Assembly (NCBI GenBank): GCA_029834535.1
Contig: JAQMWT010000423.1
Span: forward strand, 1 to 54,947
Length of the DNA stretch: 54,947 bases
Origin: Chrysophaeum taylorii
Lineage: Eukaryota > Sar > Pelagophyceae > Pelagomonadales > Pelagomonadaceae
Direction: 5' to 3'
Of the stretch, positions 1,225 to 48,391 are shown one piece after another. The notes below the pieces were generated by a model. It made no database searches. It was not told the DNA's origin and saw nothing but the letters and a program-made list of their open reading frames with translations. Both the position numbers and the translations under genes were made by a program. The stretch's first letter is position 1. Every line of letters starts with the position of its first letter.

Positions 1225-1381
1225 GCCGAAGCGGCGAGCGCCAATATGGATTCAGAGGCGAGATGTGGAACGCCAGATATAGCAGCGGTGACGATAGCAG
1301 CGGTGTCATAATACTGCACTTTCGCCGAGCGATGGGGAAAAGATCGAGCAAGACCTCATCACCATCGGTTGTCTGGACCCT

Positions 1382-2431
1382 GGTACACTTACGTTCATAG
1401 TTGGTCATATTTACAGACGACGAGACGGGCCGAAGTTCGCAACGACTTTAGGCGTGGATGGAATGGCTGATGTCTCCTATATTTGTCGTGGGATGGTCGA
1501 AAAACTGACAAAGGATAATATAATCCTTGACCGAGGCGATCTCCCAGTCGAGCGCACCCTGTACGGGTCAGGATTGAATAAGACGACTATCCACAAATGG
1601 GTCGCATTGCGAATTGCGCTCGCGGACGACAGTTGCCCGTTGTGGCCGATACTAATCACCTATTTGCTGGGAGCGCGCGATATTCGGGTGTTGGGAGCCA
1701 TAGTGGACTACCCGCGAAATCGCATTGCGTTTCTCCGCACACAAGTCGCTTATGGGCGCAAGAAGTTAAAGGTGCAGGATCGACGAGTCGATTCTCCGAT
1801 TTTGACGTTCAGAACAACTTATGACGAGCGTGGTAGTTCAGGTTTATGGGCAACAGCACCATGCGATGTAAAGAGCCTGAGCACAGTTGAGAACCGCGTT
1901 TACGCTCGCTTGTGCAAGATTGAAGACCTCCAGCGTCCACCGCCGAAACGAGCGGGAGCTTCGACGACTTGGGGAGTCCCTACAGTTACGCCTTCTCAAA
2001 GTTCGAACAGCGATGCCTATGAAGTGATAGCCTACGCTGCGTGCACGATAAAGGTCGAGCCTGGGCGCACTTGCTGCGTGCCAGTCGCTCTTTCAGAGCC
2101 CATGGAAACCGGGCAAGTTTTCGTTGCTACGTCTCCTGGATACGAGCAACTTGGGGTAGTCGATGGAATGTGTTCTTCTCCTGAGGATCACGATAAGTTC
2201 GCAGCTCGAGTGGCGATATCCTCTACCCAGGATGTGCCGACCGTGATTACTCAAGGTGAAGTTCTCGCTTTGGGCGATATTGTTCGTTTTGATGACGAGC
2301 TGAATGCTGAGACGGTCGACGATTTAACGAAGGATGGTGAAGCCGAATCTGACAAGGCTAACCTATCGTTCACTGTTTCGGTCGCAAGCCATCTGACTCA
2401 AGGCGATGCGGCTCCCGACCGATGCTTTTGA
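1382..2431 (+). pseudogene. Retropepsin-like aspartic protease segment (copy A)
   Basis: The frame is open from about 1382 to a TGA at 2429-2431. It has the retropepsin layout: a hydrophobic strand (LTFIVGHIYRRRDG), the active-site turn FATTLGVDGMADVSYICR at about 1436-1490, and the late strand RVLGAIVDYPRNRIAFLR at about 1684-1740. Normal retropepsins have D-[ST]-G-A; here the site reads D-G-M-A. Gypsy B has VGVDGIADVTYICR at the same place. The protease would cut the Gag-Pol polyprotein. The following 250 residues are unrecognised but are shared with gypsy B (a QPGRTYNVPV-like stretch). The same frame continues after the stop into the DNMT, so protease and DNMT were one polyprotein. Confidence 0.75.
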
Positions 2432-2587
2432 GCTCGGTGCAGAAGGCGTCTCCTTCTGATAAGAATAAGAATTCTCGTCAAGAATCGCTCGGTAACGACG
2501 ATTTCGACCGACGAACCGACGAGGAGGAAGAAGTGCCGAGAAGTTACAGAAGGCGAGATTCGCCGAAGGTTTGAAAAAGTCCACTGG

Positions 2588-3767
2588 GTGCCGATCACGT
2601 ATCGCAAGGTTGTGATGCTCTTTAGCGGCGCCGGAGGCAGTACTTTAGGACTGCAACGAGCGAATGAGTTGTGCGGGACGTCGTTTCGAGTCGTCCTTGC
2701 TCTTGACTCTTCAACAGCTGCCAACAAGATTCATCAGAAGAATTTTCCGAAGATACCTGTGGTTCAGCACACGCTCTGCGGACGATATGACTCGACCCTC
2801 CGATTGATCAAGGCTTATTTGCCTGAAGCGGAATGGTCATCGTCGATGTGTATAGCGTCTCCACCCTGCGTTCATTCAGCACTCTGCAACTTGACATCCA
2901 GAGATGTTGGCAGGGGAGTTACGGCCACTAATTGGACGATGAAGCTGTGCAAAATGGCTGGCTTCATGATGTGGCTGATTGAACAGGAGGCGTCCATTAT
3001 TTCTTATATAGCGCGCTTACACCCTTACGTGTACGTCGTCAATTTTCATGATATCACGCCCACTTTGATGATCTCGCGTGCGATTGTTGGTTTCCAGTCA
3101 CCCACTGCACTTGCAAGAGGCTCCGAAGACATGTGTGAATATGCAACCAAAATTTGCTGCAGCTTTAGGTTACGCTCATGAACGCCACCTGCTCCAGCTG
3201 AATAATCTCGGCTCGTCCCGAGAAGCAACAGATACGGCTTACACCGTTACGCGAGTTCCTCTTCGTTTGGGACCGCATCGCTCGGACACTCAGCCTTTGA
3301 CTCTCGAGATGACGGCCGAGTTGCTCACGATGCCGCTGGACCATGATTGGGCTAGCTTGTCTAAGACAGATTCGTTCAAACATTTAGCGTCTGTCGTCCC
3401 TCCAGACACTCTTGCGATTTTAGCAGTCGATCTGCACAACTCCGTGACCAGAGGTTTCCGCCAAAGTGGCGAAGTCCTGCCGACCGCGTTGAGCCCGACA
3501 GATCGATCCTTTGAGCAGTATTTGCGAATTACCGACACCACCCTTCGTCACGTACAGATTCCGCTGTTAAATACGCGTACTCGTGTCGTTAAGTGGGTGT
3601 CAAAAGATGATCTCCAGGATCCCACTAAATGGGAACCGCCAGAAGTCCCTATGCTTCCGCTTCCAACAGATGCGCCGGGGACGGCTCATGCTTTTCTGCT
3701 GGCCCCCCCCGACAATCAAAAGTGGACGTTCCGCCGGATCCTGAACCTGAACAGGAGCCGAAAGTAA
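2588..3767 (+). pseudogene. DNA (cytosine-5) methyltransferase domain of retrotransposon Pol, frameshifted (copy A)
   Basis: Motif I is VMLFSGAGGSTLGLQ (SAM binding), motif II is in VVLALDSS, and the catalytic motif IV is ASPPCVHSA with its Cys present. Motif VI is reduced to IEQE. The motif VIII Arg sits at a frame break near 3075-3080, where reading moves to the frame 3078-3767. That frame carries the late motifs: TVTRVPLRLGPHRSD (IX region) and an IVPP-like motif X (SVVPPDTLAIL). The domain would transfer methyl groups to cytosine C5. It lies in frame with the protease (one stop between) and upstream of RT. The copy is inactive because of the stop and the frameshift. The match to the open version at 37266-39509 is clear throughout. 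Confidence 0.88.
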
Positions 3768-4855
3768 GGAGCGAGCCGAATGTGCGCGTCAAAGGTGAAA
3801 AGATCAATAAGAGCCACCCTGAGGTGAGGTTCAAATACGAAGAAAAGTTCGATGTGCCATGGAAGGATGCGCCGCGCGACGCGGACGGTGTACCGTTACC
3901 GCAGACTCCGGAGCACGTCAAGGACAATGAGGCGATGAAAGTCGTAACTCCGACGAAGGAAGAAGTCGAAAAGGTTGTTCGAGAACTGGGAATTCCCGAC
4001 AACCCGCATCTGGATGAGGATGCGAAGATGATGTTGAGCCACTGCGTGCAATACGCGTGGGCCTTTTTTGATCCGATTATGAGACCCGTGGACTCGCCAC
4101 CGGTTTCTCTACGATTTAAAGACGCAAACCCACGACCGATCAAGATGACGCCTTATAGGTTGACGCCAGCAAAGCTCGAGTGTCTCAGAAAGCAGATCAC
4201 TGAGTGGTGTCGCGATGGAGTCATCCGACCGGCGAACTCTCCGTGGGGATTCCCTGTACTGATGCTGCCTAAGAAGGGAGCAGAGGCCGGGACGTCGAAT
4301 GCTTTTCGTGCTGCAGTTGACTTGCGTCAGCTCAATGATCAGCTGGTCAATGACAGTTGGCCGAATATTCGTCAAGATGATGCTTTGGCTTTTCTTGCCA
4401 TGCGCCGTTGGCGGACGTGCATTGATATTCGATGGGGTTATCATAACCTACGTTTGGACGCCGCCGCTCAGGACGCCGTTACGATGGTGACATGGATGTA
4501 TAAGGACTTGGTCGCGTTTGTCGACGATATTATGATGGGATCGGATGAACTCCACCGACATTTACAAGTCTTGATTGAAGTGCTGTGCCATTTAGCGCAG
4601 CGAGGATATAGTGGACGAACTTCGAAGTTCCACCTCCTCGAAGATGAAATCGAGTTTTGGGACACTTCGACTCCGGAAGGCTTGAAGCCGAATCCCAAGA
4701 CGTTAGAAGCGTTGCAGCAGATGCCGATTCCCGGTACGTTGCCGAACGTCCCCGAAGACCCAGATTCGATCTTTCATCGGCATGAGCAACTATTGCCGCC
4801 GATGTGCGAAGAATTATTCGAAGATTGTGGAGCCGCTGAGGCGATTGTGTCTTGA
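3629..4855 (+). pseudogene. Reverse transcriptase (copy A), motif-B segment deleted
   Basis: Ty3/gypsy RT signatures are present: RDGVIRPANSPWGFPVLMLP, the AAVDLRQLND strand, motif A in CIDIRWGYHNLRLD, and motif C FVDDIMMG. Between VTM (about 4490) and WMYKDLV some 40 residues present in copies C and D are missing, including the conserved LPLG stretch (motif B), so this RT cannot work. The frame fails again near 4770, after PIPGTLPNVP. The segment overlaps the DNMT frame (3629-3767). The switch lies close to a run of eight C at 3693-3700. Confidence 0.92.
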
Positions 4856-5926
4856 AGGTGTTAAGTTTGAGTGGACGCCTGAGTGCCAAAGGCATGGGAC
4901 ACGATCATCGAAGCTTTGGTGGACTCTCGCGGAGTTTATCATCCTGACTACGATCTTCCTTTTCAGATCCGCTCGGATGCTTCCAAGGATGGTCTGGGCG
5001 CGTATCTTTTTCAGCTCGTGGAAGTCAAGGACGAAACCGGCAAGGTGACACGAGAGGAACGAGTAATTGAGTATTGGAGCCGAGCTGTGCCGAAAGAGAT
5101 GCGGAACTATGAGCCTCGCCGGCTAGAGCTACTGGCGGTTATTCTTTCTCTTGAGCATTTCCGCTCTTATATCGAAGGTCACAAGACGATCCTTGAAACG
5201 GATCATCGCAACTTGACGTTTTTACGAAAGGCGAAGCACTCGTCTGGGCAGTTGGCTCGATGGGCGATGCGGCTCGCCAATTTTGATCCTGAATTGGGTT
5301 ACAAACCAGGGAAGTCGCCGGGAATGAGTATCCCTGACTGTCTCTCTCGCAATCCTATAGATCATGTCATCGAGACGGATGAGTTTGGTGAACCCTTGAA
5401 CCACGCGTATCTAGTGTGCCAAGAACTTCCTCGCCCTGTCGATGATGAAGGAGTACCTTTACCTGGGTGCCATGTCATTCTGTCGTTTGTTACGACTGAG
5501 TTGCCTGTGGAGGAAGAAGAAGAGGATCTCGATGATCCGATGCAATTGGTCACGTCTCATGCTACGAGACAACGTCAGAAGCAACGTCTGCAGACCCAAC
5601 CTAGTATTTTCCGTGATGCCGATGATTACCAAGAGTACATCGACAAGATCCCGGATAATTCGACTTTGGAAGAGATAGCCAAAGAGCAGATCACTGATGC
5701 TACTTGCGAGGACATTCGTTATCGCATGGCTCAGGGCCATTCTCTTCGTCGGTATGGAGCCAATTATCGCTATCAAGTGGTGAAAGGAGTTCTCTACCGT
5801 GCCGCACCTGACTTGCACCCGATGATAGTCGCACCCCGAACTTTACGGACGCGCATCATCCGATTGTACCATGAATCTCAATGGTGGTCACATGAGTCGT
5901 CAAAGTACAGTGCAGTCGATACTTGA
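4782..5926 (+). pseudogene. RNase H and integrase zinc-finger region (copy A)
   Basis: Two overlapping frames cover the RT connection and RNase H. The connection reads NYCRRCAKNYSKIVEPLRR. RNase H acidic residues lie in IRSDASKDGLGAYLF, RRLELLAV and LETDHRNLTFL, as in the Ty3 RNase H family. A 130-residue linker follows (CLSRNPIDHVIETDEFGEP and an acidic stretch), then the helix before the integrase zinc finger (EEIAKEQITDATCEDIRYR). The frame breaks near 5870 inside the HHCC finger and continues in the next entry. Confidence 0.9.
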
Positions 5927-9135: not shown

Positions 9136-9140
9136 TACTT

Positions 9141-22505: not shown

Positions 22506-22507
22506 GG

Positions 22508-30920: not shown

Positions 30921-31010
30921 TCTTGCCCATTGGTGAGTTGGAGGTTACCTCGAGGATTTCGCTTGTCCTTGTCTTTGTCCCGACGTGCGTTGGAGCGGCG
31001 GTGCTCAACG

Positions 31011-33267: not shown

Positions 33268-34446
33268 TTAGTAGTTTGTAGGGCTCGGGTAGGCGAATCC
33301 TCTGAAAACCTGCCGCTGCATCTGCTGCTGCTCGGGGGTGGCGAGGGCGACCATGTCAAGATGGCGGAACCCTGCGACGGAGTGGCGGGTCTTGTGGCGT
33401 GACAAAGGGGGGGTCTTGTTGTCGCTGTTGCTTGACGTTGTCATGGTGTTGGTGGTGTGTTCCTTGTCGTCGTTGTCGCCGCCGCTTCTTCTCGCCTTGG
33501 CGGCCGCCGCCACCGCCTCGGGGGCGGTGTCGAGGGGGGTCAGCGTCGCGTCGTCGGCCAATAAAGGGACTCCGTCCTCCTCCTCCTCCTTGATGAAGGC
33601 TGGGGTCGGCGGCACGAGGGGGGGATCGAGTCCCTTGCGATAGACGTGGTCCCAGTCGACGCCGCCAAAGTAGGCGTGGTTTTTGACAGCATCGACCTCC
33701 TGGAGCCTCGAAGCGGGGTCTTTCTCCAAGAGACAACATAATAATGCGTCGACAGGACCGTCGGTCCTCGGCGCGCGCGCTCTCAGGATATTCGTAAATA
33801 TCCCCCTTGTGGTGTCGGCACGAAACGGCGTCTGACCCGTCGCGAGTTCGTACAAAACACACCCGAGCGACCACCAGTCGACGGCCTTTGTGAGGCACCC
33901 CCCCTTCTGCAACACCTCGGGGGCCACATACTCGATCGTTCCGGCGAATACCTTCGTTTCGCCCCCAGTCGAGCACAACCCGAAATCAGCTATCGCCACG
34001 TGACCCCGCCGGTCGACGAGGATGTTGCTCGGCTTGAGGTCGCGGTGGACGAGACCCTTCATGTGCAGGTGGCCGATCCCGAGGGCAAGCTCGCACGCGT
34101 AGAAACTCACGCATCTAGCCCGCGCACCGTCCAGGGACCCAAAATAAAACGGCATCCCCAAGTACAGCGCCTCCTCGGTCTGGAACGCGAACTTGAGACC
34201 CGCCAGAAACGGGTGCTTGAGCCGCTTCAATATCGCTCGCTCCAACTTGGTCTGGTCCACCATCCCTTTCTCGATGATCACCTTCTTCTCCAACATCTTC
34301 ATGGCAACCACCCGCCGACTCCCTGATTCTACCACGGCGGCGACGTCTCCGAACGACCCCCGCCCGAGCCATGCGGCCATCTCAAAGTCGCACGGTGCGA
34401 ACGGTTGCGCGGACATCCGTTCGAGCCCCTTGAGCATCCTCACCAT
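33268..34446 (-). CDS. AGC-family serine/threonine protein kinase
   Basis: Single-exon gene of 392 residues. I start at the Met at 34446 (GGGAGATGG, a fair Kozak context); the frame is open up to 34593 but that part looks like 5' leader. Kinase marks, numbered from this Met: glycine loop GRGSFGDV (29-36), Lys50 in VVAMK, Glu70 in the C-helix, HRD Asp136, DFG Asp154, T-loop TKVFAGTIEYVAPE (Thr164), VDWWSLG. The end QVFRGFAYPSPTNY matches the AGC hydrophobic motif FxxF[ST]Y but has Ala instead of the phosphorylated Ser/Thr. GTxEYxAPE plus this tail place it near the AKT/S6K/SGK group. Three stop codons in a row end it. It is intact, unlike its transposon neighbours, and is the best candidate host gene here. 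Confidence 0.9.
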   Translation of the reverse strand: MVRMLKGLERMSAQPFAPCDFEMAAWLGRGSFGDVAAVVESGSRRVVAMKMLEKKVIIEKGMVDQTKLERAILKRLKHPFLAGLKFAFQTEEALYLGMPFYFGSLDGARARCVSFYACELALGIGHLHMKGLVHRDLKPSNILVDRRGHVAIADFGLCSTGGETKVFAGTIEYVAPEVLQKGGCLTKAVDWWSLGCVLYELATGQTPFRADTTRGIFTNILRARAPRTDGPVDALLCCLLEKDPASRLQEVDAVKNHAYFGGVDWDHVYRKGLDPPLVPPTPAFIKEEEEDGVPLLADDATLTPLDTAPEAVAAAAKARRSGGDNDDKEHTTNTMTTSSNSDNKTPPLSRHKTRHSVAGFRHLDMVALATPEQQQMQRQVFRGFAYPSPTNY

Positions 34447-34720
34447 CTCCCTCCTTCCTCTTTCGTGTGGATTTTTTTTTTGCCGTTGTGTTTCTACAAG
34501 TACCGTCATTGGACGAGGCGATCTAACCTGGTTTGATCCCCCCAAAAAATAAAATAAGGATAAGTTTGGTTTTTGTTGGATCTTTCGATACAAATCTTCG
34601 CAGGCAGTTGTTGGGTTGGATTATCATTTTGACGCGACGCGTCTCCTGGTTGGTTTGGTTTGATTGATTTCTTAGCCGACGAGCGCTTTTTCGGTTGGTT
34701 TGGTTTGGTTTATTCTCTTC

Positions 34721-35005
34721 CGGCGTAGGTTGGCACCTATTCGCCTCCCGGGCGGGCCGGTTGGCAGCCGGAACGTTCGCAGTGGGACGGGGTATGGCCG
34801 GGGGGCGAAGACGGAAGGTTATCGACGAGTTGGTTGTCAGTCACATCGCGGTCTCCTCGTCGCATGGCGACAAGCTTGATGGTCACTCTCCGCCGACCGA
34901 CCTTTCGGCGCTCCTCGTCTACAGGCCCGTGATTCCGGACTGGCTCCTGTCGGTCCGGCCTGGCTCCCATGCTCGGGAGAGGTCTGAAGTTAGTTAGTTA
35001 GTTAG
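34721..35005 (+). mobile_element. SINE copy 6 (short form)
   Basis: 285 bases from CGGCGTAGG to the TTAG tail. The exact 11-base duplication TTATTCTCTTC (34710-34720 and 35006-35016) fixes both ends and shows that the short form is a complete insertion unit. It lies ~275 bases upstream of the kinase start. Confidence 0.95.
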
Positions 35006-35081
35006 TTATTCTCTTCACCGACGCACGCCTATTTTTCTATGTATATATTCTTTTGTCTCTTCGCCGACGCATTCCTGAACC

Positions 35082-35519: not shown

Positions 35520-35849
35520 TGTGGCAGTAATGCCCATTTCCCCCACTTGCCTGCCTGCCACCTGACTTACCCTGGTTGTTGCCCTGGTATTGACCTTGCA
35601 TTTATGGGGGGGTGTCATCTTGACACCTTCACCTGCGCTTCCACTGGACCCAATGTACCGGGCATTTGTATTGCTTTCTTGCTGTCTTCTTGATATTACC
35701 CTCTTTTGATTGTCCGATTTCGTGATGGCGTGAGGTATTACGCTGAGATCGGGCGTGTGGTGGTTTCACCCGCGGTTCGGGTTGGGAGGAAGGGTTGTTG
35801 AGGCCCCCGGTCCGGCCAGGAGGGGCGGGTTTCCGAGAAAACCACTACA
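35520..35849 (+). repeat. 5' LTR of gypsy C
   Basis: Starts TGTGGCAGTAATGCCC and ends ACCACTACA, the usual TG...CA. It aligns over all 330 bases with 43177-43506. I found no obvious TATA box; a TTGATATTACCC stretch lies in its middle. Confidence 0.95.
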
Positions 35850-35850
35850 G

Positions 35851-35872
35851 TGGTCTCAGAAACGGGAATCGA
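35851..35872 (+). promoter_or_regulatory. Primer-binding site of gypsy C
   Basis: One base after the 5' LTR lies TGGTCTCAGAAACGGGAATC. Its complement is a canonical tRNA 3' end: T-loop TCGATT with C56, A58 and C61 in place, a T-stem, acceptor strand TTCTGAG, A73 and CCA. Complementarity therefore spans about 22 bases, into the T-loop. A C1-G72 pair with A73 would fit eukaryotic tRNA-Tyr, but I could not check against the host tRNA. Confidence 0.85.
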
Positions 35873-35906
35873 TAGTCCAACTCCCGGACTATCGATCTCC
35901 TGTTTC
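35859..35906 (+). other. Large hairpin overlapping the primer-binding site
   Basis: A perfect 11-base stem, ATCGATAGTCC (35868-35878) and GGACTATCGAT (35886-35896), has a 7-base loop. It extends outward through GAAACGGGA (35859-35867) against CTCCTGTTTC (35897-35906) with one mismatch and a bulge. The lower stem uses primer-site bases. Confidence 0.75.
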
Positions 35907-36281
35907 TCGGCGGCGAGTCGGTTCGTAACGGTCGAGTGAGTGCGAAGCCGACGCATTTGTGGGTGAAGATCCAGAGGATCACGGGTACCGCCGCGGGGTT
36001 CATTTTACGTGATTCGGATCGAACGGAGAGCGGAGTCACTACGACTCATTTTGCATACTTTTGCATATCGATCGTCATATCGTAAGGCATTGTTATAAGA
36101 CCTAACTAGCTCGCGCGAGGCAGACCACCTCCCTGACGGCGAGCGACTACACCGGGAAGGCCGTCCATAGTCTTCACGCGCAAGGCAAATGCTTCCGTAA
36201 GACCAGCGCACCGGTACAGCGCGCAGTAGTCAGACGGCTGCCGGCAATTGTCGTCTGACGAAAGAATACAACAAGTGAGTT

Positions 36282-37259
36282 GTGAACATCCGGAACAAAC
36301 CTATTATCCGGGCAAATCGCGATCATGGCAGAGAGGCCAATGACAGAACGATCGCAGTGTTTCGGGACGCACAGGGGCGTCTGCAACGATTCAGTGCAGG
36401 GACTCCGTTTGCGTCTATTGGAAGAACACCGTTCAGTACGCCCTTTCAACGACAGGAAGCCGAGGAAAGCGGCATCGGAAGAGAGGCAAGATCATATGAT
36501 AGCCTCGACAGCCCCCCGAGCGTGGTCATCCTTTCGGATCCACGCGGCGGCGAAGGGGGGGATACGGTTGCGTCAGACGCAACTTCAAGACAAGGGGAGC
36601 CGACGTTCCCGTACGCACGACCCTACGAACGTGCGATGAATACTACGGAGTCATCTCGAGCGGAACCCGAACCGTTTACGGCGATGCGTGGACCAGAGGA
36701 GAGTGCACCTCCTAGGCCACCATCTGTGAATATGAGAGCGACAGATTTTCGCGGGGATGTCGCCCCCGAGGTTCTGCAGACCATCAACGAACGATTCGAG
36801 ATGTACCAGTCGCAGATGGAGCAAATCATACGTGAACTTGAGAACACCCGCCGCGACGCTCAACAACAACGCTCAGAAGTGGAGCGACCGCGGATCGACA
36901 ACGATCGACTTCGGCGAATGATGGAGGAATCCATGCAGGCGCATGCTCGAGAGGCACGGCCAACCTCTCCGAATGCTACGCGTGTTACGCCCGACGACGA
37001 TAATGACGCTGTATCGGCACTGACCGACGATCAGCCACCGCGAAGTCGACCGGAGCCTACCCCGCACCATCATACTGACCCCGGTTCGGCGCGTCCTCGT
37101 GACGAAGAAGAAATACTTCGTGTCCGGAAGGGAGCTGCTGGTATGACACGTATCACATTCTCGAATCTCACGGGGCAAATTACCAAGGACCGTGATGAGG
37201 TGGACGCGTGGTGGATGCAATTGCGGCGTATGATGGAGGGAAAGATTGATAAACCCTAA
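36282..37259 (+). pseudogene. Gag N-terminal part (gypsy C)
   Basis: A 325-residue open frame has a Pro/Arg/Glu-rich disordered start, a coiled coil (INERFEMYQSQMEQIIRELE then QQQRSEVERPRIDNDRLRR), an Asp-rich linker, and the conserved Gag entry MTRITFSNLTGQITKDRDEV with WWMQLRRMMEG. The capsid helices and the zinc-binding segment seen in copy A and gypsy B do not follow, so the frame ends early, probably at a deletion junction. The true start could lie elsewhere in the frame. Confidence 0.65.
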
Positions 37260-37265
37260 ATAGCG

Positions 37266-39509
37266 ATGAACGTGATTGGAGGCGAGTATCAACTTGCCCC
37301 TATGGAAGCTTATCGCAAGTGGGAAGTTGAACGACCGCCGATGTGGAAACAATACAAGGATGGGACCATCACAATGAAAGAGTTGCGGCAGCATGATGAG
37401 GACTGTCTGGATGCTATGCAAGAAGCGACGAAGCTTCCTTGTCCACCTCGGGCTACGGTTGAGGAGCTTGAACGTGAATGGTTCAATTTACGACTCTTGG
37501 GTACGATTTTGGATTATGCGACAGAGAGAGCTATTTTTCGGCGTTCTGAAGTGACCATTGGGGTTCTCAAGAATCGGACTTCCGCCTCACCACAAGACCA
37601 GCATGGAATTGTGCTTTACAATGATGCATTCGATGCGACTCCGCAGGTAGTGCAGATGTTCCCGACAGCTAAGCTTTCTGTGCAATACGGGAACATCCAA
37701 ACTTGGACGCCAGTTGGTAAACCGTGGGGTTATGACAGTCTATTGCGTTCTATTCGTATCAGAGCGAATCACCATCACATTCCTTCCGGTGATCAGACTG
37801 CTGGAAAAGCTGAAGACCAACTTGAATGCCCTGCATACGAGGAAGATATCATCCCTCATTTCGCGTACGTGACGAGTACTCGATTTCTTCTTCCAAGCCA
37901 ACCGTACTTCTTGGAGATGGGGTGCGATGTGCCGCTGGAAAAGAGTCATGTATTCCGACCTTATCGGACACTCCTCCAAGATCTCCGCCTTGTACCTGGT
38001 TCCTATTCATCGTATTGTGCTGATGAGCCCAACGAAGTTCATGTGGCTGTGGAGCACATTGGTGACGAACCCATTGGTATCGACCCCGAAGTCCCGGTGG
38101 TCGAAGGCGAGATCATGCCGCATGAAGGATGTGTCAACATGCAGCTAGAAGCCATTGATGACGTGTGTCATGCCACGCTTACGGCTGCTGTTGACGACGA
38201 CGAAGTCGAGGAGGATGTCTTGAGTGACAGACCTCCTCCTCAGCCACCTCCATATGAAGAAGTGAAAAAAACACCAGAAATGGAGATGGAGGCGACTGTC
38301 AAGGAGCTGCTATCTAAGCACGCCTCCTTGGCTTGGATACCCATCACCTACACATTCGTCGTTGTCTACTTTGCTGGCGCTGGAGGATCAACGTTGGGTA
38401 TCCGGCGATGCAATGAGCTATATGGCAGTTCATTTCGCATTGTCCTGGCTTTGGATGCTTGTCCTCAAGCCCGAGCCACCTTTGAACTCAATTTTCCGAA
38501 GATTCCCAACGTTTTGCATGAGTTGGGGAAATCTCATCGTCGTACATGCGACTTGGTGTTGTCGTATTTACATTCAGATTTTTGGAAGCACTCTTATTTT
38601 CACGCCAGTCCGCCGTGTATCTATGGATCGACTGCCAATTTGCACTACAGGGACGCACGCAAGGGCGCTACTATTACTTCTTGGGTCCTGCGTCATTTCC
38701 GCAACGCACCTTATGTGATTGGACGATGGACACTCGAGCAGGAACCATCAGTGATCCCTTTTGTGCATCACCAATTTTATGTGCCGCGTATTGTTGATTT
38801 CTATAGTATCACGCCAGAGCTGCTGTGCTCGCGCATGCGCCTACTTGCTTGCAATGTTCGCTTGGAACTGCCGTTATTATCGCGTGTACCACCGAATTTA
38901 CGGGACCGTTTTGGCCCAGCGTTGGGATTTACGGGTGGTCACCCGCTCATTATAGTGAACAGTTTCTCATCTACGCGCCCGGCTATCGGCCCTGCCTTCA
39001 CGGTGACGCGCAATAAGCTCCGCTTAGGACCTCATTTCTCGAACACCCGTCCACTCACGTTGCAGATGCACCAGGAAATTATGACCGTCCCTGCTACGTG
39101 GCAATGGGGTGCGACAGTTTCCGAGACAGTAGCTATGAAGATGCTTGGCAGTATGGTGCCACCCGCGACTATGACGCGGATTGCGCTAGCAGTGCACAAT
39201 TCGTTTGAAACTTCACTTCGAAATTTGGGTAAGTTCCGGAATATTGCGACGACTACGCTAGACCAATCTGATCACCATATTCTACGGTTTTCACCTTTTG
39301 CTATAGAGTCGCGCATTCCAACGCTCGACCCTGCCACTCGAAGTGTATCATGGATTTCGCCCGATGAACTCTACTCTTCTGCGAGTCCTGCACCATCCGC
39401 TGCTGCCACCACCACCCCGCCACCGCCTTCAGTTACATCGCCTGGGACGGCTTCATCTTTTTGCAGGGGGCACCGTCGCCACTGCTGTTATGCAGAGCAA
39501 CCAAGTTGA
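37266..39509 (+). CDS. Protease remnant fused to a complete DNA (cytosine-5) methyltransferase (gypsy C Pol)
   Basis: A 747-residue open frame. Residues 74-92 (NLRLLGTILDYATERAIFR) match the last strand of the retropepsin; the catalytic Asp is absent. Residues 150-350 are the linker shared with copy A. The DNMT spans about 360-650: motif I FAGAGGSTLG (369-378), Asp397 in LALDA, motif IV SPPC with catalytic Cys451, motif VI Glu491, motif VIII RMR (523-525), target-recognition region 526-570, motif IX around RPAIGPAFTVTR (571-582), motif X GSMVPP (628-633). The enzyme would methylate cytosine, perhaps the element's own cDNA. After motif X come ~100 residues leading into the RT frame, which overlaps by 167 bases in another frame. 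No CXXC, BAH or replication-foci domain is seen. Retrotransposon DNMTs are published for dinoflagellates and charophytes. Confidence 0.92.
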   Translation: MNVIGGEYQLAPMEAYRKWEVERPPMWKQYKDGTITMKELRQHDEDCLDAMQEATKLPCPPRATVEELEREWFNLRLLGTILDYATERAIFRRSEVTIGVLKNRTSASPQDQHGIVLYNDAFDATPQVVQMFPTAKLSVQYGNIQTWTPVGKPWGYDSLLRSIRIRANHHHIPSGDQTAGKAEDQLECPAYEEDIIPHFAYVTSTRFLLPSQPYFLEMGCDVPLEKSHVFRPYRTLLQDLRLVPGSYSSYCADEPNEVHVAVEHIGDEPIGIDPEVPVVEGEIMPHEGCVNMQLEAIDDVCHATLTAAVDDDEVEEDVLSDRPPPQPPPYEEVKKTPEMEMEATVKELLSKHASLAWIPITYTFVVVYFAGAGGSTLGIRRCNELYGSSFRIVLALDACPQARATFELNFPKIPNVLHELGKSHRRTCDLVLSYLHSDFWKHSYFHASPPCIYGSTANLHYRDARKGATITSWVLRHFRNAPYVIGRWTLEQEPSVIPFVHHQFYVPRIVDFYSITPELLCSRMRLLACNVRLELPLLSRVPPNLRDRFGPALGFTGGHPLIIVNSFSSTRPAIGPAFTVTRNKLRLGPHFSNTRPLTLQMHQEIMTVPATWQWGATVSETVAMKMLGSMVPPATMTRIALAVHNSFETSLRNLGKFRNIATTTLDQSDHHILRFSPFAIESRIPTLDPATRSVSWISPDELYSSASPAPSAAATTTPPPPSVTSPGTASSFCRGHRRHCCYAEQPS

Positions 39510-41300
39510 TAACCAGCCCTCCGCAACTGCTGAAGAAGAAGGCACCGCGAAAGAGCGACCAGCGTATTTCAATACGTACGACGTTCCGTGGGCGGACGCG
39601 CCTCACGACGAACATGGTCAACATTCACCGGTGATGCCTCCTCATTTAGCGGATCAGGAGAGCATGCAGGTCATCCCTCCGACCGTCGCGCAGGTCGAAG
39701 AGGTGATGACTGAATTGGGTATTACAGAGCATCCTGCCTTAGATGATGACGAGAAGCTGATGATGAAGCATTTAATCTCGTATTCGTGGGCATTTTTCGA
39801 TGATGTGATGAGACCTGTTGATTCACCTGAAGTGACGCTCCGGTTCAAAGAAGAGAACCCGACTCCCGTCAAACTCTCGCCATATCGGTTGTCGAAAGAA
39901 AAGATTGAATGTTTGCGGATGCAGATTGAAGCATGGACCCGAGACGGAGTTATTCGTCCCGCGAATTCTCCATGGGGTTTCCCTATTTTGATGTTGCCTA
40001 AGAAAGGTGCTGAGCCTGGCACTTCCAATGCTTACAGAGCAGCTGTCGACCTACGGCGCCTCAATGCATTGCTCAAGGATGATAGCTGGCCGAGTGTGAG
40101 CATGGCTGACGCGTTGATGTTTCTCATTGACAAGTTCTGTCGTTCCAGTTTGGATATTCGTTGGGGCTATCACAATTTACGATTGTCGCTGGATGCACAA
40201 GATGTGGTCACCTTCACTAGTCCTCTGGGAGCGCACAGCTACATGCGTCTACCTTTGGGAGTCAAACCAGCCGGAAGTTTGTTTTGCAAGCAGTCGAACA
40301 CTGACTTGTCGCAATGGCTATATCGTGATCTCGTGGCGTATATCGACGATATTCTCGCCGGTCACGCAGATACAAAGAATCACTTGCAGTGCCTTGTGCA
40401 GGTTATTCCCCATCTCGCCTTGAAGGGGTACAGCGCCAAGATCAAGAAGATTCATTTTATGCAAGAAGTCATTTAGTTTTTGGGTCATTTATCTGCCCCG
40501 AACGGACTTCTTCCATCACTAAGATCTTTAGAAGCCATCAGACACATGCCGATTCCTGGCACTTTGTCGGATGCTGACCCTAAGAAGCAAGTGCGATCTT
40601 TCCTTGGAATGGGGAGCTTTTGCCGGCGTTATGTAAGGAATTTTGCGAAAGTTGCGGAGCCATTAAGACAGCTGACATTGCCGGACGTGAACTTCAAGTG
40701 GACGAAAGAGTGTCAGGAAGCTTGGGATGCCATCATCGAGGCTATTGTCACGTCGAAGGGCGTCTACCATCCTGATTACTCGTTGCCTTTTACATTCGAA
40801 CTGATGCTTCCGCGCATGGGTTGGGTGCTTACCTATTTCAAAAAGTACCAGTCGTTGACGACGATGGAAGAGAAGGAATCGAAGAGAGAGTTGTCGAGTA
40901 CTGGAGTCGAACCGTGCCTAAGTCGATGAGGAAGTATGATCCTCGGCGCTTGGAACTCCTCGCAGTACTCTCTGCTCTCGAAAATTTCCGATTTTATATC
41001 GAAGGTCATCATACGAAGTTAGAGACGGATCATCGTAATTTAACGTTTCTGCGGGATTCGAATCATACGTCTGGACAATTAGCACGATGAGCTATGCGGC
41101 TTGCTGCGTTCGACCGGGAGCTCGGATGCAAACCTGGAAGCTCCCCTGGCATGCGTATTCCGGATTGTCTGTCGCGTAACCCTATCGACAAATTGATCGA
41201 GAAAGATGAAGACGGGGAACCGATCAATGAAGCTTTTTTGATTTCCAAGAAATCCCCACCGATGTCCCTGGCACCGCTTGCTTCACCTTCTCTTCGGTGA
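39343..41300 (+). pseudogene. Reverse transcriptase and RNase H (gypsy C), broken
   Basis: RT runs in one frame from 39343 to a TAG at 40474-40476: RDGVIRPANSPWGFPILMLP, AAVDLRRLNA, motif A SLDIRWGYHNLRL, motif B region RLPLGVKPAGSLF, motif C YIDDILAG. The same frame resumes (FLGHLSAPNG, then the connection FCRRYVRNFAKVAEPLRQL). A one-base shift near 40795 moves to IRTDASAHGLGAYLF, and RNase H continues with RRLELLAVLS and LETDHRNLTFL. A TGA at 41088-41090 replaces the Trp of the conserved QLARWAMRLA. A further shift at about 41297 leads into integrase. Few lesions, so decay is recent. The frame starts inside the DNMT frame. Confidence 0.93.
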
Positions 41301-43141
41301 CGATGCCTATGCTGACGGACAGCGGACCCACCGCAGCTATGGTAGCAGTTAGTACGCGACAGAACGCACAACCGCCTCAATTCTCGTACGAATCTGAGCC
41401 AGTTGACTCCGTCGAACGTCTCCCTTTTGCGGATCAAGCGGAGGATGAGATCACTCTCGACGAGATAGCGAAAGAACAAGCTGAAGATGAAACATGCAAG
41501 CGCATCAGACGAAAGCTCGATTCGGAACAGAAAGATCAAGACGAGCAGTCATCGGTACCATATGAGATTGATGACAACGTGTTGTATAAGGTCGATGATT
41601 CAGCTTCTCAACGTCTTATCGTGGTCCCTCTGTCTATGCAGACGCGTGTGATCGCCATGCATCACCGAGGCTTGTTCGGAGGCCATGTAGGACGAGATTC
41701 CACAGCGAATCAAATCCTAGAACGGTATTGGTGGCCAAACGTCTCATCATCCGTTAATGAGTTCGTCAATGCCTGCATTATTTGCCAGAAGATTCGATCC
41801 ACCATGCCTAAGCGCAATGGCTTGCTCTGTCAACCAAATCGCATCGGAGACTGCTATGTCCTAGGTATGGATTTGATTGGACCTCTACGAGGCGCTGACC
41901 TGTACACGTACATACTCGCAATGTACGATGCAGCATCACATTTCTTGAAATTAGCTCTGATCAACACGAAGCACGATTATTCGATCTTGAACGCGTTTGT
42001 GGACAAGATTTTACTTGAGGGATGTCTCCCACGGTGCATAGTCACGGATAATGGAAATGAGTTCGCGAACAGGTTATTTCGCACGTTTGTTCGTCAATTC
42101 AACGTACGTTGTCGTACTACCCTTCCGTATCATCCTCAGAGTAATCATACTGAGCGTGTCAATCGATTCATCAAAGCCTTCTTGCGAGCTGCGATCGATG
42201 AACAGCGTCAGCCAGATTGGTCGAAATTCCTCCCATATGTGTCATTCATGTACAATAGGATGTACATTCCGGGAACGAAGATTTCACCTTTCATGATGCG
42301 TACTGGCAAGCAACCCCTGTTACCACCCGATTACAATCTTTTGAGTGAACAGCGTGATCTACCGCAATCACGTCATCAGATTTTGGTGGACTTTAAGAAC
42401 AAGTTTGAATTTTATAGTCGACTCGTTACACGAGCTCATCAGAAAGCACAGGAAAGTCAAAAACTCAACTATGATGCCCACCAAGTTGACATCCAGTTTT
42501 CCCCAGGTGATTATGTTCTGCGTTTCGTGCCTAAAACACGCCACAAGCTACGGCCCATTTGGCGCGGACCTTACATGATTACTATAAAGATCTCTCCCGT
42601 CGTTTATGAAATTCAAGACGTTAACGACGATGATGCTGAATCGGTTGTAGTATCTGTTCAACAGATTGTGCCTTTGAAAGTGCCAACCATCGACACTTCT
42701 TCAGCCCCTCTACATTTACCCTCGGACCGCGACCGGTTCAAACATGGTAAGTTCGTGATTTTCAGGGTGAAAGGACGATCCAACGCGCGGAAGAAGCGTA
42801 TATATGTTGCCGAAGTCTACGAAGAATATGACTACGACAATGATACAGTTGCGCTTCACTATTATACCGATTTGGGACCACGCGATGATCCTCGCGTCTT
42901 TGATCCTACTAAGCCTCTGGCTGAGCGGCGCTTAAGACCAGAATACAAAGATCCTGACGGAGGTAGCTTCACACGCCTACGACCCAACATGGAGGGCTGT
43001 GAACCCTGTGTGACTGATTTTCGCCCGGATGAAATCGATGTCCTCGTCACTAACTTCGGTCTCCACAGCAACAAAGTTCCTGCTGATGTAGCTGAACGAG
43101 CTTATCGTACCATTCGTGAGCGTGACCTTCGTCACCCTTGA
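41297..43141 (+). CDS. Integrase with post-integrase C-terminal domain (gypsy C)
   Basis: A 614-residue open frame. Zinc finger: MHHRGLFGGHVGRDS with CIICQK. DDE acids lie in LGMDLIGPL, IVTDNGNEF and HTERVNRF. The SH3-like tail reads LRPIWRGPYMITIKISPVVY. From about residue 480 comes a further ~130-residue domain: KHGKFVIFRVKGR, KKRIYVAEVYEEYDYDNDTV, ALHYYTDLGP, RRLRPEYKDPDGGSF and FRPDEIDVLVTNFGL. Copies A and E keep the same domain. It sits where chromoviruses carry a chromodomain. The frame looks fully functional, although its start depends on the upstream Pol frame. Confidence 0.92.
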   Translation: MTMPMLTDSGPTAAMVAVSTRQNAQPPQFSYESEPVDSVERLPFADQAEDEITLDEIAKEQAEDETCKRIRRKLDSEQKDQDEQSSVPYEIDDNVLYKVDDSASQRLIVVPLSMQTRVIAMHHRGLFGGHVGRDSTANQILERYWWPNVSSSVNEFVNACIICQKIRSTMPKRNGLLCQPNRIGDCYVLGMDLIGPLRGADLYTYILAMYDAASHFLKLALINTKHDYSILNAFVDKILLEGCLPRCIVTDNGNEFANRLFRTFVRQFNVRCRTTLPYHPQSNHTERVNRFIKAFLRAAIDEQRQPDWSKFLPYVSFMYNRMYIPGTKISPFMMRTGKQPLLPPDYNLLSEQRDLPQSRHQILVDFKNKFEFYSRLVTRAHQKAQESQKLNYDAHQVDIQFSPGDYVLRFVPKTRHKLRPIWRGPYMITIKISPVVYEIQDVNDDDAESVVVSVQQIVPLKVPTIDTSSAPLHLPSDRDRFKHGKFVIFRVKGRSNARKKRIYVAEVYEEYDYDNDTVALHYYTDLGPRDDPRVFDPTKPLAERRLRPEYKDPDGGSFTRLRPNMEGCEPCVTDFRPDEIDVLVTNFGLHSNKVPADVAERAYRTIRERDLRHP

Positions 43142-43176: not shown

Positions 43177-43506
43177 TGTGGCAGTAACGCCCATTTCCCC
43201 CACTTGCCTGCCTGCCACCTGACTTACCCTGATTGTTGCCCTGGTATTGACCTTGCATTTATGGGGGGGTGTCATCTTGACACCTTCACCTGCGCTTCCA
43301 CTGGGCCCAATGTACCGGGCATTTGTATTGCTTTCTTGCTGTCTTCTTGATATTACCCTCTTTTGATTGTCCGATTTCGTGATGGCGTGAGGTATTACGC
43401 TGAGATCGGGCGTGTGGTGGTTTCACCCGCGGTTCGGGTTGGGAGGAAGGGTTGTTGAGGCCCCCGGTCCGGCCAGGAGGGGCGGGTATCTGAGAAAACC
43501 ACTACA
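43177..43506 (+). repeat. 3' LTR of gypsy C
   Basis: 330 bases, TGTGGCAGTAACGCCC to ACCACTACA, five differences from the 5' LTR. Two of the differences are CG against TG (TAACGCCC/TAATGCCC and TCTGAG/TCCGAG). The sequence after it, starting ACATACGTCCGGCGG, recurs 607 bases downstream. Confidence 0.95.
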
Positions 43507-45149: not shown

Positions 45150-47208
45150 TCAACACACAGGGTCGTCTGGAGGGTCTGCTTCTTCCGGCAAGTCGGTCGT
45201 GATGAACGACAATATGACATGGAATCCGGCAAAGGGTACTCCTTTCTCATCAATAGGTCTCGGCAGCTCTTGGAACACCAAATAAGCGTGATTGTGAGGT
45301 TCACCAAACTCGTCAGTCTCGATGACGTGATCTATATGATTGCGGGAGAGACAATCAGGGATGCTCCTTCGTGGCGACATTCCCGGCTTGTAACCAAGTT
45401 CGGGATCGAAGTTCGCGAGTCGGATAGCCCATCGAGCGAGCTGGCCAGAAGAGTGCGTAGCCTTTCGCAAGAACGTCAAATTGCGATGATCAGTCTCGAG
45501 AACCGTCCTATGCCCCTCAATATAAGCTCGAAAGTGTTCCAGAGAGAGGATGACTGCCAATAGCTCCAGCCGACGGGGTTCATAACGTCGCATCTCCTTC
45601 GGTACAGCGCGGCTCAAATACTCGATCACGCGCCCCTCTCGCGCAACCTTTCCACTATCGTCCTTGACTTCGACAATTTGGAAGAGGTAGGCGCCAAGAC
45701 CATCTTTAGACGCGTCCGAGCGGACCTGAAACGGCAAATCGTAGTCAGGGTGATGCACTCCTCTGGGATCGACTAAAGCAGCAATGATTGTGTCCCAGGC
45801 CTTCTGGCACTCGGGCGTCCACTTGAACGGCACGCCTTCGAGACACATACGTCTTGGCGGGTCCACAATACTGGAGTAGTCCTTTACATATCGGCGGCAG
45901 TAGTTGCCCATGCCGATGAAGGGCCTGATCTGAGTCTTTGGTGGAATGTTGGGAAGGGCCCCTGGAATTGGCATGTTCTGCAGTGCTTCCACCGTCTTGG
46001 GATTCGGCTTCAAACCGTCCGTAGTAGAAATATGGCCCAGAAACACGATATCATCCTGGAGAAGGTGAAACTTCGTGGTTCGACCGCTATATCCTCGCTG
46101 CGCCAAGTGGCACAGAACTTCGATTAAAACTTGCAGATGACGGTGGAGATCGTCCGATCCCATCATGATGTCGTCAATGAAGCCAATCAAATTCCCGTAT
46201 CGACAAATCGCTGGCCATCTGGTTGCAGAAGGGGGCTCCAGCGCTTTTCGCTCCAAGAGGCAAGCGCAGGAAACTATGGGCTCCGAGTTGGCTGACCATC
46301 GTGACGGCGTCCTAGGCTGCAGGATCCAAACGAAGATTGTGATATCCCCATCGTATGCCAATACGTGTTCTCAAGTGGCGCATCGCAAGAAGCGCTAAGG
46401 CACCATCCTGTCGAATGTTCGGCCAGCTATCATTGACTAGCTGATCTTTGAGCTGTCGTAAGTCTACTGCGGCACGAAAAGCGTTCGACGTCCCAATCTC
46501 AGCTCCTTTCTTGGGTAGCATGAGCGCAGGAAATCCCCAGTGGGAATTCGCAGGTCAGATCACTCCATCGCGACACCACTCAGTAATCTGCTTGCGAAGG
46601 TAATCGAGCTTAGCCGGAGTCAAACAATAAGGCGTCATCTTGATCGGCCTTGGGTTCGCGTCCTTAATTCGTAAAGATACCGGCGGCGAGTCCACTGGTC
46701 TCATGATCGGGTCGGAAAATGCCTGTACATATTGAACGCAGTAACTGAGCATCTACTTTGCATTGTCGTATAGGTGCGGATTGTCAGGTATTCCAAGTTC
46801 CTTCACGACTTTCTCGACTTCTTCTTTAGTCGGCAGCTTCACTTTCATCGCTTCATTATCCTTTACCTGCTCGGGAGTCTGCGGCAAAGGCACGCCATCT
46901 GCGTCACGCGGTGCATTCTTCCACGGTGCATTCTTCCACGGCACATCGAACTTTTCCTCCTATTTGAATCTCACTTCTGGGTGACTCTTGTAGATCTTCT
47001 CCCCTTTGACTGGCACGTTTGGTTCGCTCTTCACGTTCGGTTCCTTATTCTGTTCAGGATCCGGCGGAACGTCCAATTTCGGTTGTCGGGGGGGGGGGGA
47101 GCAGAAGAAGCATGAGACGTCCCGGGCGCATCTGTCGTAGGCGGAAGCAAAGGTACTTCGGGAGGTTTCCACTCGGTGCGATCCTGTAGATCTGCAGCGG
47201 ACACCCAT
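45150..47208 (-). pseudogene. Reverse transcriptase and RNase H (gypsy D)
   Basis: From 47208 down to 46312 a single frame is cut by stops near 46960, 46753, 46555 and 46312. One stop replaces the Arg of GVIRPANS (CGA to TGA). RT marks: AAVDLRQLKD, IGIRWGYHNLRLD, then after a shift FIDDIMMGSDDLHRHLQ. The long frame 46361-45150 runs through the connection (NYCRRYVKDYSSIVDP) and RNase H (RSDASKDGLGAYLFQ, RRLELLAVIL, ETDHRNLTFL) without a stop. Unlike copy A it keeps the stretch before motif C, though out of frame. Confidence 0.92.
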
Positions 47209-47956
47209 TTGACGACACGGGTGCGCGTGTTAATCAGCGGAACTTGCACGTGACGGAGAGTAGTGTCAGTGACTTGCAAGTAACTTTCGGAAGGTCGTCT
47301 GCGGGACTCGACGCGGTTGGAAAGACTTCACCTATGTGATGGAGTCCTTTGGACTCGGAGTTGTGCATACCAGCTGCTAAGATTGCGAGAGTGTCTGGAG
47401 GTACGATAAACGCTAAATGTTTAAGCGAGGCTGTCTTGGATAAGCCTGCCCAGTCATAGTCCGGTGGCATAGTTAGCAATTCGGCGGTCATCTTGAGGGT
47501 CAACGGCTTGGCATCGGAGCGATGGAGTCCTATTCGAAGAGGGACACGCGTGACCGTATAGGCGGCATCCGTGGCGTCTCGGGACGAACCCATATTGTTC
47601 ATCTGAAGCAAATGTCGCTCGTCACCATAGCCAAGCTGTGCTGCGAACTTGGTTTGCATGTTCGTGCAAGTTTTAGGAGCTTCTCGCAGGTGCAGCGAGT
47701 GACTGGAAAACAAGAAACGCACGTGGCGGCTCATTAGGTTGGGCGTGATGTCGTAAAAATTGACGACGCCAACTAAAGGGTGCGGTCGGGCCACGTAGGA
47801 GATGATCGAGGCTTCGTGTTCAATCAACCAGAGTAGAAAACCGGCTTTCTTGCACAGGTTCATGGTCCAGTGAGTCGCAGTGACGCCACGGTATCCTCCA
47901 CCATTTGTGGCAGGAGAAACGGCTCCGACCTGCTCAGGGGTGTTTCGCCGACACAC
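47031..47956 (-). pseudogene. DNMT C-terminal half (gypsy D)
   Basis: The reverse strand reads RGVTATHWTMNLCKKAGFLL, WLIEHEASIISYVARPHPLV, NFYDITPNLMSRHVRFL (motif VIII), TVTRVPLRIG (IX region) and a motif-X-like FIVPPDTLAILA. Motifs I to IV are gone. A shift near 47280 moves the end into the frame 47279-47031, which carries VKWVSAADLQD and a Pro-rich run at a stretch of twelve G (C on the reading strand, 47088-47099). It is closely related to copy A and less so to C. Confidence 0.88.
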
Positions 47957-48337: not shown

Positions 48338-48364
48338 AACGCGGGGTGAGTCGACGAACGTAGT

Positions 48365-48376: not shown

Positions 48377-48391
48377 GCGGATCGACAAAAC

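What the first reader, a model, noticed from the sequence alone, without database searches (positions are those of the whole stretch)
37266..39509. Cytosine-5 DNA methyltransferase built into Ty3/gypsy Pol between protease and RT
One open frame fuses a protease remnant to a DNMT with motifs I, II, IV (SPPC), VI, VIII, IX and X all recognisable. The same domain lies at the same place in copies A (2588-3767) and D (47031-47956). Three independent insertions show that it belongs to the element. Retrotransposon DNMTs are published for dinoflagellates and charophytes; whether this is one of those lineages or a further capture is open.
Basis: partly seen in the sequence, partly recalled or inferred. 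Interest (0 to 1): 0.88.

Follow-up and report, generated by a model that had tools for sequence, protein, structure and literature searches.

The report
Algal retrotransposons carrying DNA methyltransferases
Jumping genes of two unrelated kinds in what is probably a marine alga each carry their own version of an enzyme that normally puts methyl marks on DNA to keep such elements quiet, and selection keeps that part intact, so it becomes testable whether the parasite itself writes the mark.

Summary
Confirmed and extended. The window's Ty3/gypsy element (330-nt LTRs at 35520-35849 and 43177-43506) has a C5-DNA-methyltransferase domain at 38334-39203, between protease region and RT (PF00145, 1.1e-9 for the domain alone). 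It is a standing part: 66 listed matches of this family, 150 of the sister family of copy A, some in open frames of 2115 to 3067 aa. It is under selection: dN/dS about 0.06, against 0.02-0.03 for RT in four of five measurable pairs, 0.13-0.17 for protease, 0.2-0.4 for linkers. Copy A is frameshifted in the domain; copy D lacks the catalytic half; the main copy lacks the protease active site.

New: a Ty1/copia family of the same genome (155 matches) carries a second methyltransferase, with no detectable similarity, after its protease. Of 57 listed PF00145 hits, 55 are this copia family, two are host DNMT2 and DNMT5; no DNMT1 or DNMT3 was seen. Two gypsy copies sharing one deletion of the domain have unrelated 3' flanks, so the shortened form moved. 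Host probably the pelagophyte Chrysophaeum taylorii (inferred from assembly numbers). Activity and methylome untested; no CpG depletion.

The parts
35520..35849 (+). 5' LTR, 330 nt, TG...CA; 98.5% identical to the 3' LTR
   Evidence: BLAST of the two ends: 332 aligned nt, 5 mismatches; bases read
35850..35875 (+). presumed primer binding site, starting one base after the LTR
   Evidence: position next to the LTR only; tRNA not assigned; inference
36279..37259 (+). gag-like open frame (326 aa), no Pfam family above its cut-off
   Evidence: position as in L039 849-2453
37260..37487 (+). first 76 residues of the long frame: gag-side sequence joined to Pol, protease active-site segment missing
   Evidence: 27 of 66 rows start at residue 76; relatives have the missing part
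37488..38333 (+). region between protease and methyltransferase (protease remnant plus linker)
   Evidence: Pol alignment 37488-39470; dN/dS of this linker in other copies 0.21-0.28
38334..39203 (+). C5-cytosine methyltransferase domain: motif I FAGAGG, IV SPPC, VI EQE, VIII SR.RLL, X MVPP
   Evidence: PF00145 1.1e-9, 13 of 13 in A1; phrog_116 1.3e-10; invariant columns
39307..40476 (+). reverse transcriptase open frame, in another frame than the methyltransferase in this copy; ends at a stop
   Evidence: PF00078 5.7e-10
40477..41230 (+). rest of RT and RNase H region, broken frames
   Evidence: similarity to the Pol frame of L039, residues up to 1488
41231..43141 (+). integrase open frame
   Evidence: PF17921 1.3e-16; PF00665 1.7e-7, 31.9 bits, just below its cut-off of 32.6
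43177..43506 (+). 3' LTR; no matching target-site duplication (flanks ggccc / acata)
2585..3443 (+). copy A: methyltransferase of the sister gypsy-A family, broken between two frames at 3072-3079
   Evidence: PF00145 2.1e-4, 21.3 bits, just below the cut-off of 22, for the first part; no match for the second
1298..2431 (+). copy A: frame with protease-like motif VDGMADVSYI
   Evidence: inside the match to Pol residues 98-685; no Pfam match; motif read by eye
3836..5893 (+). copy A: RT, RNase H and start of integrase region
   Evidence: 47.9% identical to the Pol of L039, residues 924-1631
47357..47890 (-). copy D: C-terminal part of the methyltransferase; motifs I to IV missing
   Evidence: no Pfam match
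46177..46926 (-). copy D: RT region

Best explanation
The window holds a damaged copy of a Ty3/gypsy LTR retrotransposon family whose Pol polyprotein has a C5-cytosine methyltransferase as a standing domain (order: protease, methyltransferase, RT, RNase H, integrase). SHOWN: the domain is there, it recurs at a fixed place in many copies, and selection keeps its protein sequence. SHOWN: the same genome has a Ty1/copia family with another methyltransferase after its protease, and the two domains have no detectable similarity. INFERRED, strong: two separate captures. INFERRED, moderate: the domain acts within, or after release from, the polyprotein in the particle or pre-integration complex and methylates cytosines of the element's own cDNA or of the new insertion, so that the copy arrives already marked, for instance to be tolerated, or to be handed to a host maintenance enzyme such as DNMT5. 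A form without the domain has moved, so the activity can be supplied in trans or is not needed every time. The confidence is for the whole statement; for the shown parts alone it would be about 0.95.
For: Domain identity. Place in an open Pol frame of 2115 aa: PF00145 at 531-613, RVT_1 1068-1231, RNase H 1302-1439, H2C2 1611-1669, rve 1692-1781 (below its cut-off). Lists: 66 matches (60 scored of 1323 candidates); 150 (150 of 1149). Linkage: 38 of 59 domain places have a listed RT within 2.5 kb, most often 229 nt from the aligned end (first 59 of 66 rows used). Selection: median dN/dS 0.247 among 17 close copies (136 pairs), 0.064 for 4 divergent rows versus close (68 pairs), 0.064 within 9 gypsy-A copies (36 pairs); by segment DNMT 0.055-0.072, linkers 0.21-0.40, RT 0.023-0.029 in four copies and 0.206 in one. 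Copia family: RVT_2 1.6e-38 and PF00145 1.1e-7 in one 1952-aa frame, 155 matches, dN/dS median 0.155, range 0.10-0.44, 21 pairs. No similarity between the two domains: BLASTP best E 5.4, hhalign probability 0.15%. Host DNMT5: 3e-143 to PDB 7r76 (that 7r76 is Cryptococcus Dnmt5 is recalled, the record prints another name). Precedent: SymbioDIRS-Dnmt3 methylates CG in yeast (PMC5890265, section read).
Against: No activity, expression or methylation data. Motif VI is EQE, not ENV. NCBIfam score far below its cut-off. Little mutational footprint of 5mC: CpG observed/expected is 1.02-1.11 in element stretches, not depleted, though lower than 1.12-1.46 in four host or other stretches; C/T differences at CpG are only 1.26 times (gypsy-1) and 1.30 times (copia) those at other C, and 0.83-0.87 in gypsy-A. 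By trinucleotide the highest are ACT 1.47 and ACG 1.42 (gypsy-1), ACG 1.79 (copia), CCT 2.30 (gypsy-A, short stretches). A form without the domain transposed. The structure model is poor (pLDDT 38.5). KnitGypsy-Dnmt3, the nearest precedent, gave no detectable methylation in yeast, which its authors call inconclusive.
Confidence: 0.6

Rival explanations
1. The domain acts on RNA, not DNA: it methylates the genomic RNA or the tRNA primer of the element during packaging or reverse transcription, as DNMT2 does for tRNA.
For: C5-methyltransferases of the DNMT2 group act on RNA (established knowledge); a Pol-borne enzyme meets RNA first; little DNA footprint of 5mC was seen; the 2018 paper raises RNA methylation for SymbioLINE-Dnmt.
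Against: No relation to DNMT2 seen: a PDB profile search of A1 up to E=10 lists only two chains named cytosine-specific methyltransferase, both weak (E 0.5-0.8), and no DNMT2 chain.
Confidence: 0.2
2. The domain helps the host: it lets new copies be silenced quickly and so limits damage, and selection acts through the survival of hosts.
For: Discussed as an option for the published elements; a DNMT5-type host could keep such marks.
Against: Needs selection above the level of the element; a deletion form that moved was not excluded.
Confidence: 0.1
3. The domain is a passenger without function, carried along by amplification.
For: Several copies have stops, frameshifts or deletions in it; no activity shown.
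Against: dN/dS about 0.06 between diverged lineages, lower than in the protease part and the linkers of the same genes; motif residues invariant in 13 of 13.
Confidence: 0.04
4. The frame is a host gene interrupted by the element, or an assembly chimera.
For: None beyond the broken state of the single window copy.
Against: Over two hundred listed matches on many contigs, a recurring distance to RT, and single frames through DNMT, RT and IN.
Confidence: 0.01

Closest known systems
KnitGypsy-Dnmt3 of Klebsormidium nitens (de Mendoza et al. 2018, PMC5890265; abstract, sections 9, 10, 11 and passages read)
   Same: Gypsy element with a DNMT in the Pol frame, under purifying selection (Ka/Ks below 0.2 there; medians 0.06 and 0.25 here).
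   Different: There a Dnmt3-type domain, with repeats described as arranged like a DIRS element; here ordinary direct LTRs, no Dnmt3 match or signature, another host lineage. The order of its domains is in a figure that I could not see; its copy number I did not see.
SymbioDIRS-Dnmt3 and SymbioLINE-Dnmt of Symbiodinium (same paper)
   Same: Retrotransposons with DNMT domains; the DIRS types share a frame with RT and methylate CG in yeast.
   Different: Other retrotransposon classes (tyrosine-recombinase DIRS, LINE), dinoflagellate hosts.
DNMT5 (PDB 7r76, Cryptococcus neoformans Dnmt5; this identity recalled, the record prints 'DNA repair protein Rad8')
   Same: Same PF00145 superfamily; a clear relative is a gene of this host (L002, 3e-143).
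   Different: A large host enzyme, not element-borne; the element domains show no closer relation to it in any search made here.
ParB-methyltransferase accessory gene of an algal DNA transposon (Ectocarpus Sola1, PMC12477816; passages read) and adenine methyltransferases of DIRS elements (passages in PMC5890265 and PMC6338049)
   Same: Mobile elements that bring their own DNA-modifying enzyme.
   Different: N4-cytosine or N6-adenine enzymes, other element classes.

Membership tests
C5-cytosine methyltransferase (PF00145) | significant profile match | tested here: met
   13 of 13 domains match, best 7.9e-10; window frame 34.6 bits, cut-off 22. NCBIfam TIGR00675 only 22 of 100.65 bits
C5-cytosine methyltransferase (PF00145) | catalytic Cys of motif IV and SAM-site motif I | tested here: met
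   S92 P93 C95 and F13 G15 A16 G18 invariant in A1
C5-cytosine methyltransferase (PF00145) | motif VI ENV (catalytic Glu) | tested here: inconclusive
   E135 invariant but in EQE; alignment to ENV is by position only; the copia domain has E182 N183 V184
C5-cytosine methyltransferase (PF00145) | class I methyltransferase fold | tested here: inconclusive
C5-cytosine methyltransferase (PF00145) | methylates cytosine in DNA | not testable with these tools
   needs an assay
Ty3/gypsy LTR retrotransposon | RT, RNase H, integrase in this order | tested here: met
   L039 frame of 2115 aa; same order in the window in broken frames
Ty3/gypsy LTR retrotransposon | direct LTRs TG...CA with target-site duplication | tested here: inconclusive
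   LTRs 330 nt, TG...CA, 98.5%; no target-site duplication around this copy
KnitGypsy-Dnmt3 | Gypsy element with DNMT in the Pol frame | tested here: met
   definition from PMC5890265
KnitGypsy-Dnmt3 | DNMT of the Dnmt3 clade | tested here: inconclusive
   no Dnmt3 chain among PDB hits of profile A1 up to E=10; Dnmt3 motifs IV and X as recalled are absent; no tree with Dnmt3 sequences was possible
KnitGypsy-Dnmt3 | repeats arranged like a DIRS element | tested here: not met
   plain direct terminal repeats; definition from a figure legend
Ty1/copia (second family found) | integrase before RVT_2-type RT | tested here: met
   rve 1016-1110 (17.2 bits, below its cut-off of 32.6) then RVT_2 1686-1933 at 1.6e-38 in L043

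The most novel reading that the evidence does not exclude
In a host whose only DNA-acting C5 enzyme found is a DNMT5, of the kind known elsewhere as maintenance-only, LTR retrotransposons of two superfamilies have independently taken up unrelated methyltransferases and now provide the de novo methylation of the genome: the parasites write the marks that the host only copies.
Probability: 0.25. Interest if true: 0.92.

Novelty: new variant of a known kind. Interest (0 to 1): 0.75.

Why it matters
DNA methylation is usually a weapon of the host against such elements. The cases of retrotransposons with a C5 enzyme that I could read about are few (dinoflagellates, one charophyte). Here two LTR superfamilies in one genome, probably of a stramenopile alga, carry domains without detectable similarity in corresponding places, with long match lists and strong selection. 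That suggests convergent advantage, not accident. The host has DNMT5, no DNMT1 or DNMT3 was seen, and if the inferred host is right it is grown in culture. So the question of who writes new methylation in DNMT5 genomes, and whether elements mark themselves, becomes directly testable by native nanopore reads and by expression of the domains.

Tried and rejected
Relatives elsewhere: three searches of the protein collection, two scans of viral contigs (72, 73) and one of genome contigs (74) found none; these collections hold mainly prokaryotic, metagenomic and viral sequence, so absence means little. PDB sequence search gave only weak hits. The structure of the gypsy domain is too poor to use. 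A tree of DNMT classes was not attempted, for lack of references. The 5mC decay test gave at most a weak signal. The protease-to-methyltransferase part of L039 has no PDB match. Host identification by 18S was asked for 13 times and never answered. Considered and dropped: host gene interrupted by the element (the counts refute it); common origin of gypsy and copia domains (no detectable similarity, though two saturated members of one superfamily could hide it).

Full report
Observation. The frame 37260-39509 exists and carries a C5-methyltransferase domain at 38334-39203: PF00145 at 1.8e-8 for the whole frame, 1.1e-9 for the domain alone, with 13 of 13 gypsy domains matching, and phrog_116 at 1.3e-10. 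It is a remote member: NCBIfam TIGR00675 scores 22 bits against a cut-off of 100.65, PDB sequence hits are no better than E 0.4, and no gypsy copy is among the 57 listed PF00145 hits of the genome (123 of 474 candidates scored). RT follows at 39307-40476 and integrase at 41231-43141. The element is bounded by direct repeats, 332 aligned nt with 5 mismatches; the LTRs read TG...CA, 330 nt, with no target-site duplication. This copy has lost the protease active-site part: 27 of 66 rows start exactly at its residue 76, and only C42 besides the window itself starts at residue 1. Relatives have LDGMADSPYID upstream.

Standing part of a family. In the 70.8-Mb assembly G000 the window protein finds 66 matches (60 of 1323 candidates scored, 68-100% identity), and the domain of copy A finds 150 (150 of 1149, 70-100%); rows can be pieces of one copy, and both lists are capped. 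The clearest architecture that I read is L039: a gag-like frame and one Pol frame of 2115 aa with PF00145 at 531-613, RVT_1 1068-1231, RNase H 1302-1439, H2C2 1611-1669 and rve 1692-1781 (29.4 bits, below its cut-off). Using the first 59 of the 66 rows (dropped: five second pieces of copies kept through another row, and both rows of C71), 38 of 59 have a listed RT within 2.5 kb downstream on the same strand, most often 229 nt from the aligned end: 29 with the first 71 of 147 RT rows, 9 more with 15 further rows chosen by contig. For the other 21 no RT was listed within reach. I fetched upstream DNA of 13 RT copies that had no listed domain: 10, and 3 that I picked partly because they resembled a deletion copy. 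Of these 13, 10 carry the domain, several with broken frames, and 3 lack all or most of it.

Selection. Nei-Gojobori dN/dS of the domain: median 0.247 over 136 pairs of 17 close gypsy-1 copies; 0.064 over 68 pairs between these and 4 divergent rows (L037 and L039 are the same genomic place, L045 is nearly identical to it, L038 carries a deletion, so few independent lineages); 0.064 over 36 pairs of 9 of 10 fetched gypsy-A copies; gypsy-1 against gypsy-A (43% identity) is saturated. Only copies without stops in the domain entered, which biases towards intact ones. By segment, L039 against seven gypsy-1 copies: DNMT 0.055-0.072, linkers 0.21-0.40, protease part 0.13-0.165 (one undefined), RT 0.023-0.029 in four, 0.206 in L011 where the frame is probably shifted, and not measurable in two; an eighth, near-identical pair, L039-L045, is uninformative. 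So the domain is held more tightly than the protease and its flanks, less than RT. Motif residues are invariant in 13 of 13; motif VI is EQE.

A second capture. The best PF00145 hits of the genome do not match the gypsy domain by tblastn at 1e-3 (L001-L008). L003-L008 belong to another family with one frame of 1952 aa in L043: protease-like LIDGGASFCFTR (read by eye), PF00145 at 349-475 (1.1e-7), rve at 1016-1110 (17.2 bits, below its cut-off), RVT_2 at 1686-1933 (1.6e-38). That is a Ty1/copia element. Its domain has PCQ and ENV; 6 of 6 match PF00145, best 3.6e-12, and dN/dS has a median of 0.155 over 21 pairs of 7 sequences, range 0.10-0.44. The genome holds 155 listed matches (150 of 643 candidates scored). 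The gypsy and copia domains show no similarity by BLASTP (best E 5.4) or hhalign (probability 0.15%; both profiles are shallow). In both families the domain sits between the protease and the next enzyme (RT in gypsy, integrase in copia). Two separate captures is the simplest reading.

Host. Of the 57 PF00145 matches, 20 overlap the copia list and 35 more the list. The remaining two are a DNMT2 (3.9e-39 to 1g55, named DNMT2) and a DNMT5 (3e-143 to 7r76; that 7r76 is Cryptococcus Dnmt5 is recalled, the record prints 'DNA repair protein Rad8'). No DNMT1 or DNMT3 appeared among those scored. A chlorophyll-binding gene lies beside the DNMT2 gene, and the plastid contig encodes PsaF, as red-lineage plastids do (recalled). 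Assembly size, contig number and plastid length (70.8 Mb and 697 contigs; 103,599 bp) fit the published Chrysophaeum taylorii genome (71 Mb, 702 contigs, 104 kb; PMC10366177, passages read), whose held main text has no word beginning 'transpos'. This identification rests on numbers, not on sequence; the 18S request did not complete.

Copies without the domain. C335 and C248 share one deletion that removes the domain; it is in frame in C248, while C335 has further small changes that shift the frame. They are 98.5% identical over 1291 aligned nt upstream of RT. Downstream, their similarity ends where the L039 terminal repeat ends, and the following roughly 1 kb of 3' flank has no similarity, so the deletion form transposed at least once. 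The 5' flanks were not compared. C51 has a different left breakpoint. The domain is thus not needed in cis for every round.

Mechanism. Shown: a selected C5-methyltransferase-like domain fused to Pol. Inferred: it methylates the element's cDNA or new insertion. Support comes from its place in Pol and from SymbioDIRS-Dnmt3, which methylates CG in yeast (PMC5890265, sections read). Against: CpG is not depleted (o/e 1.11 in the window element, 1.04 in L039, 1.02 in L043; 1.21 in window 17000-34000, 1.12-1.46 in the kinase, the 847-aa frame and the two host DNMT loci), and C/T differences at CpG are only 1.26 (gypsy-1, 376 pairs) and 1.30 (copia, 8 pairs) times those at other C, 0.83-0.87 in gypsy-A (24 pairs). 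By trinucleotide, ACG is raised in gypsy-1 (1.42) and copia (1.79) but not in gypsy-A (0.93), and ACT and CCT are as high or higher. So durable heavy CG methylation of these copies is not supported; weak, transient or RNA methylation remains. DNMT5 has maintenance and no de novo activity in Cryptococcus, undetermined elsewhere (PMC9246332, passages). If that holds here, the element enzymes would be the obvious de novo source; that is the bold reading.

Known work. Paper searches (also 102 and 107 on the host and on DNMT5) listed many papers, of which I read parts of eight: sections and passages of PMC5890265, passages of PMC12344493, PMC6338049, PMC9998398, PMC12477816, PMC12542154, PMC10366177 and PMC9246332. 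In these, retrotransposons with C5 enzymes come from the 2018 paper. PMC12344493 says 'LTR Copia and DIRS' for those cases, while the 2018 text says Gypsy. [quoted passage not shown] a published stramenopile C5 case can therefore not be excluded from what I read. In the passages read I saw no report of two LTR superfamilies in one genome with C5 domains, nor of these elements. The kind is known; two unrelated-looking captures in one genome make it a new variant.

Noticed in passing
L043 3096-8954; L041, L042, L044; list: A Ty1/copia family with its own C5-methyltransferase after the protease, without detectable similarity to the gypsy one, in the same genome.
   Followed up: yes
L060 (C335), L068 (C248), L070 (C51): Gypsy copies that lost the methyltransferase by deletion; two share one junction and have unrelated 3' flanks, so the shortened form has moved.
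   Followed up: yes
window 37260-37487; L010 (C42): The join that removes the protease active site is shared by one other copy (C42, 97% identical from residue 1), so this derivative may also have multiplied.
   Followed up: no
L039 3106-9453, L012 1-4005, window 1298-2431: The presumed protease reads DGMAD where DTGA or DSGA is usual; the copia family reads DGGAS. Unusual for retropepsins (usual motif recalled).
   Followed up: no
L039 Pol residues 807-960 (between methyltransferase and RT): Synonymous divergence is only 0.36-0.40 there against 0.60-0.75 in the other segments, while dN is high: recombination, an RNA signal or an overlapping frame.
   Followed up: no
window 27927-28658 (-): Remnant of a further gypsy lineage (22% identical to Pol residues 162-423, E 5e-13) with no methyltransferase match nearby.
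   Followed up: partly
window 48350-50893 (+): 847-aa open frame with no Pfam match, long proline-rich stretch; perhaps another mobile-element protein (impression only).
   Followed up: no
window 8776-9140, 10525-10813, 20699-21065, 22601-22967, 34717-35008: A short interspersed repeat of about 290-360 nt in five places of the window, both orientations, 94.8-99.3% identical.
   Followed up: no
window 51092-52106: GC-rich repeats open in several frames on both strands, so the long frames there are probably not genes.
   Followed up: no
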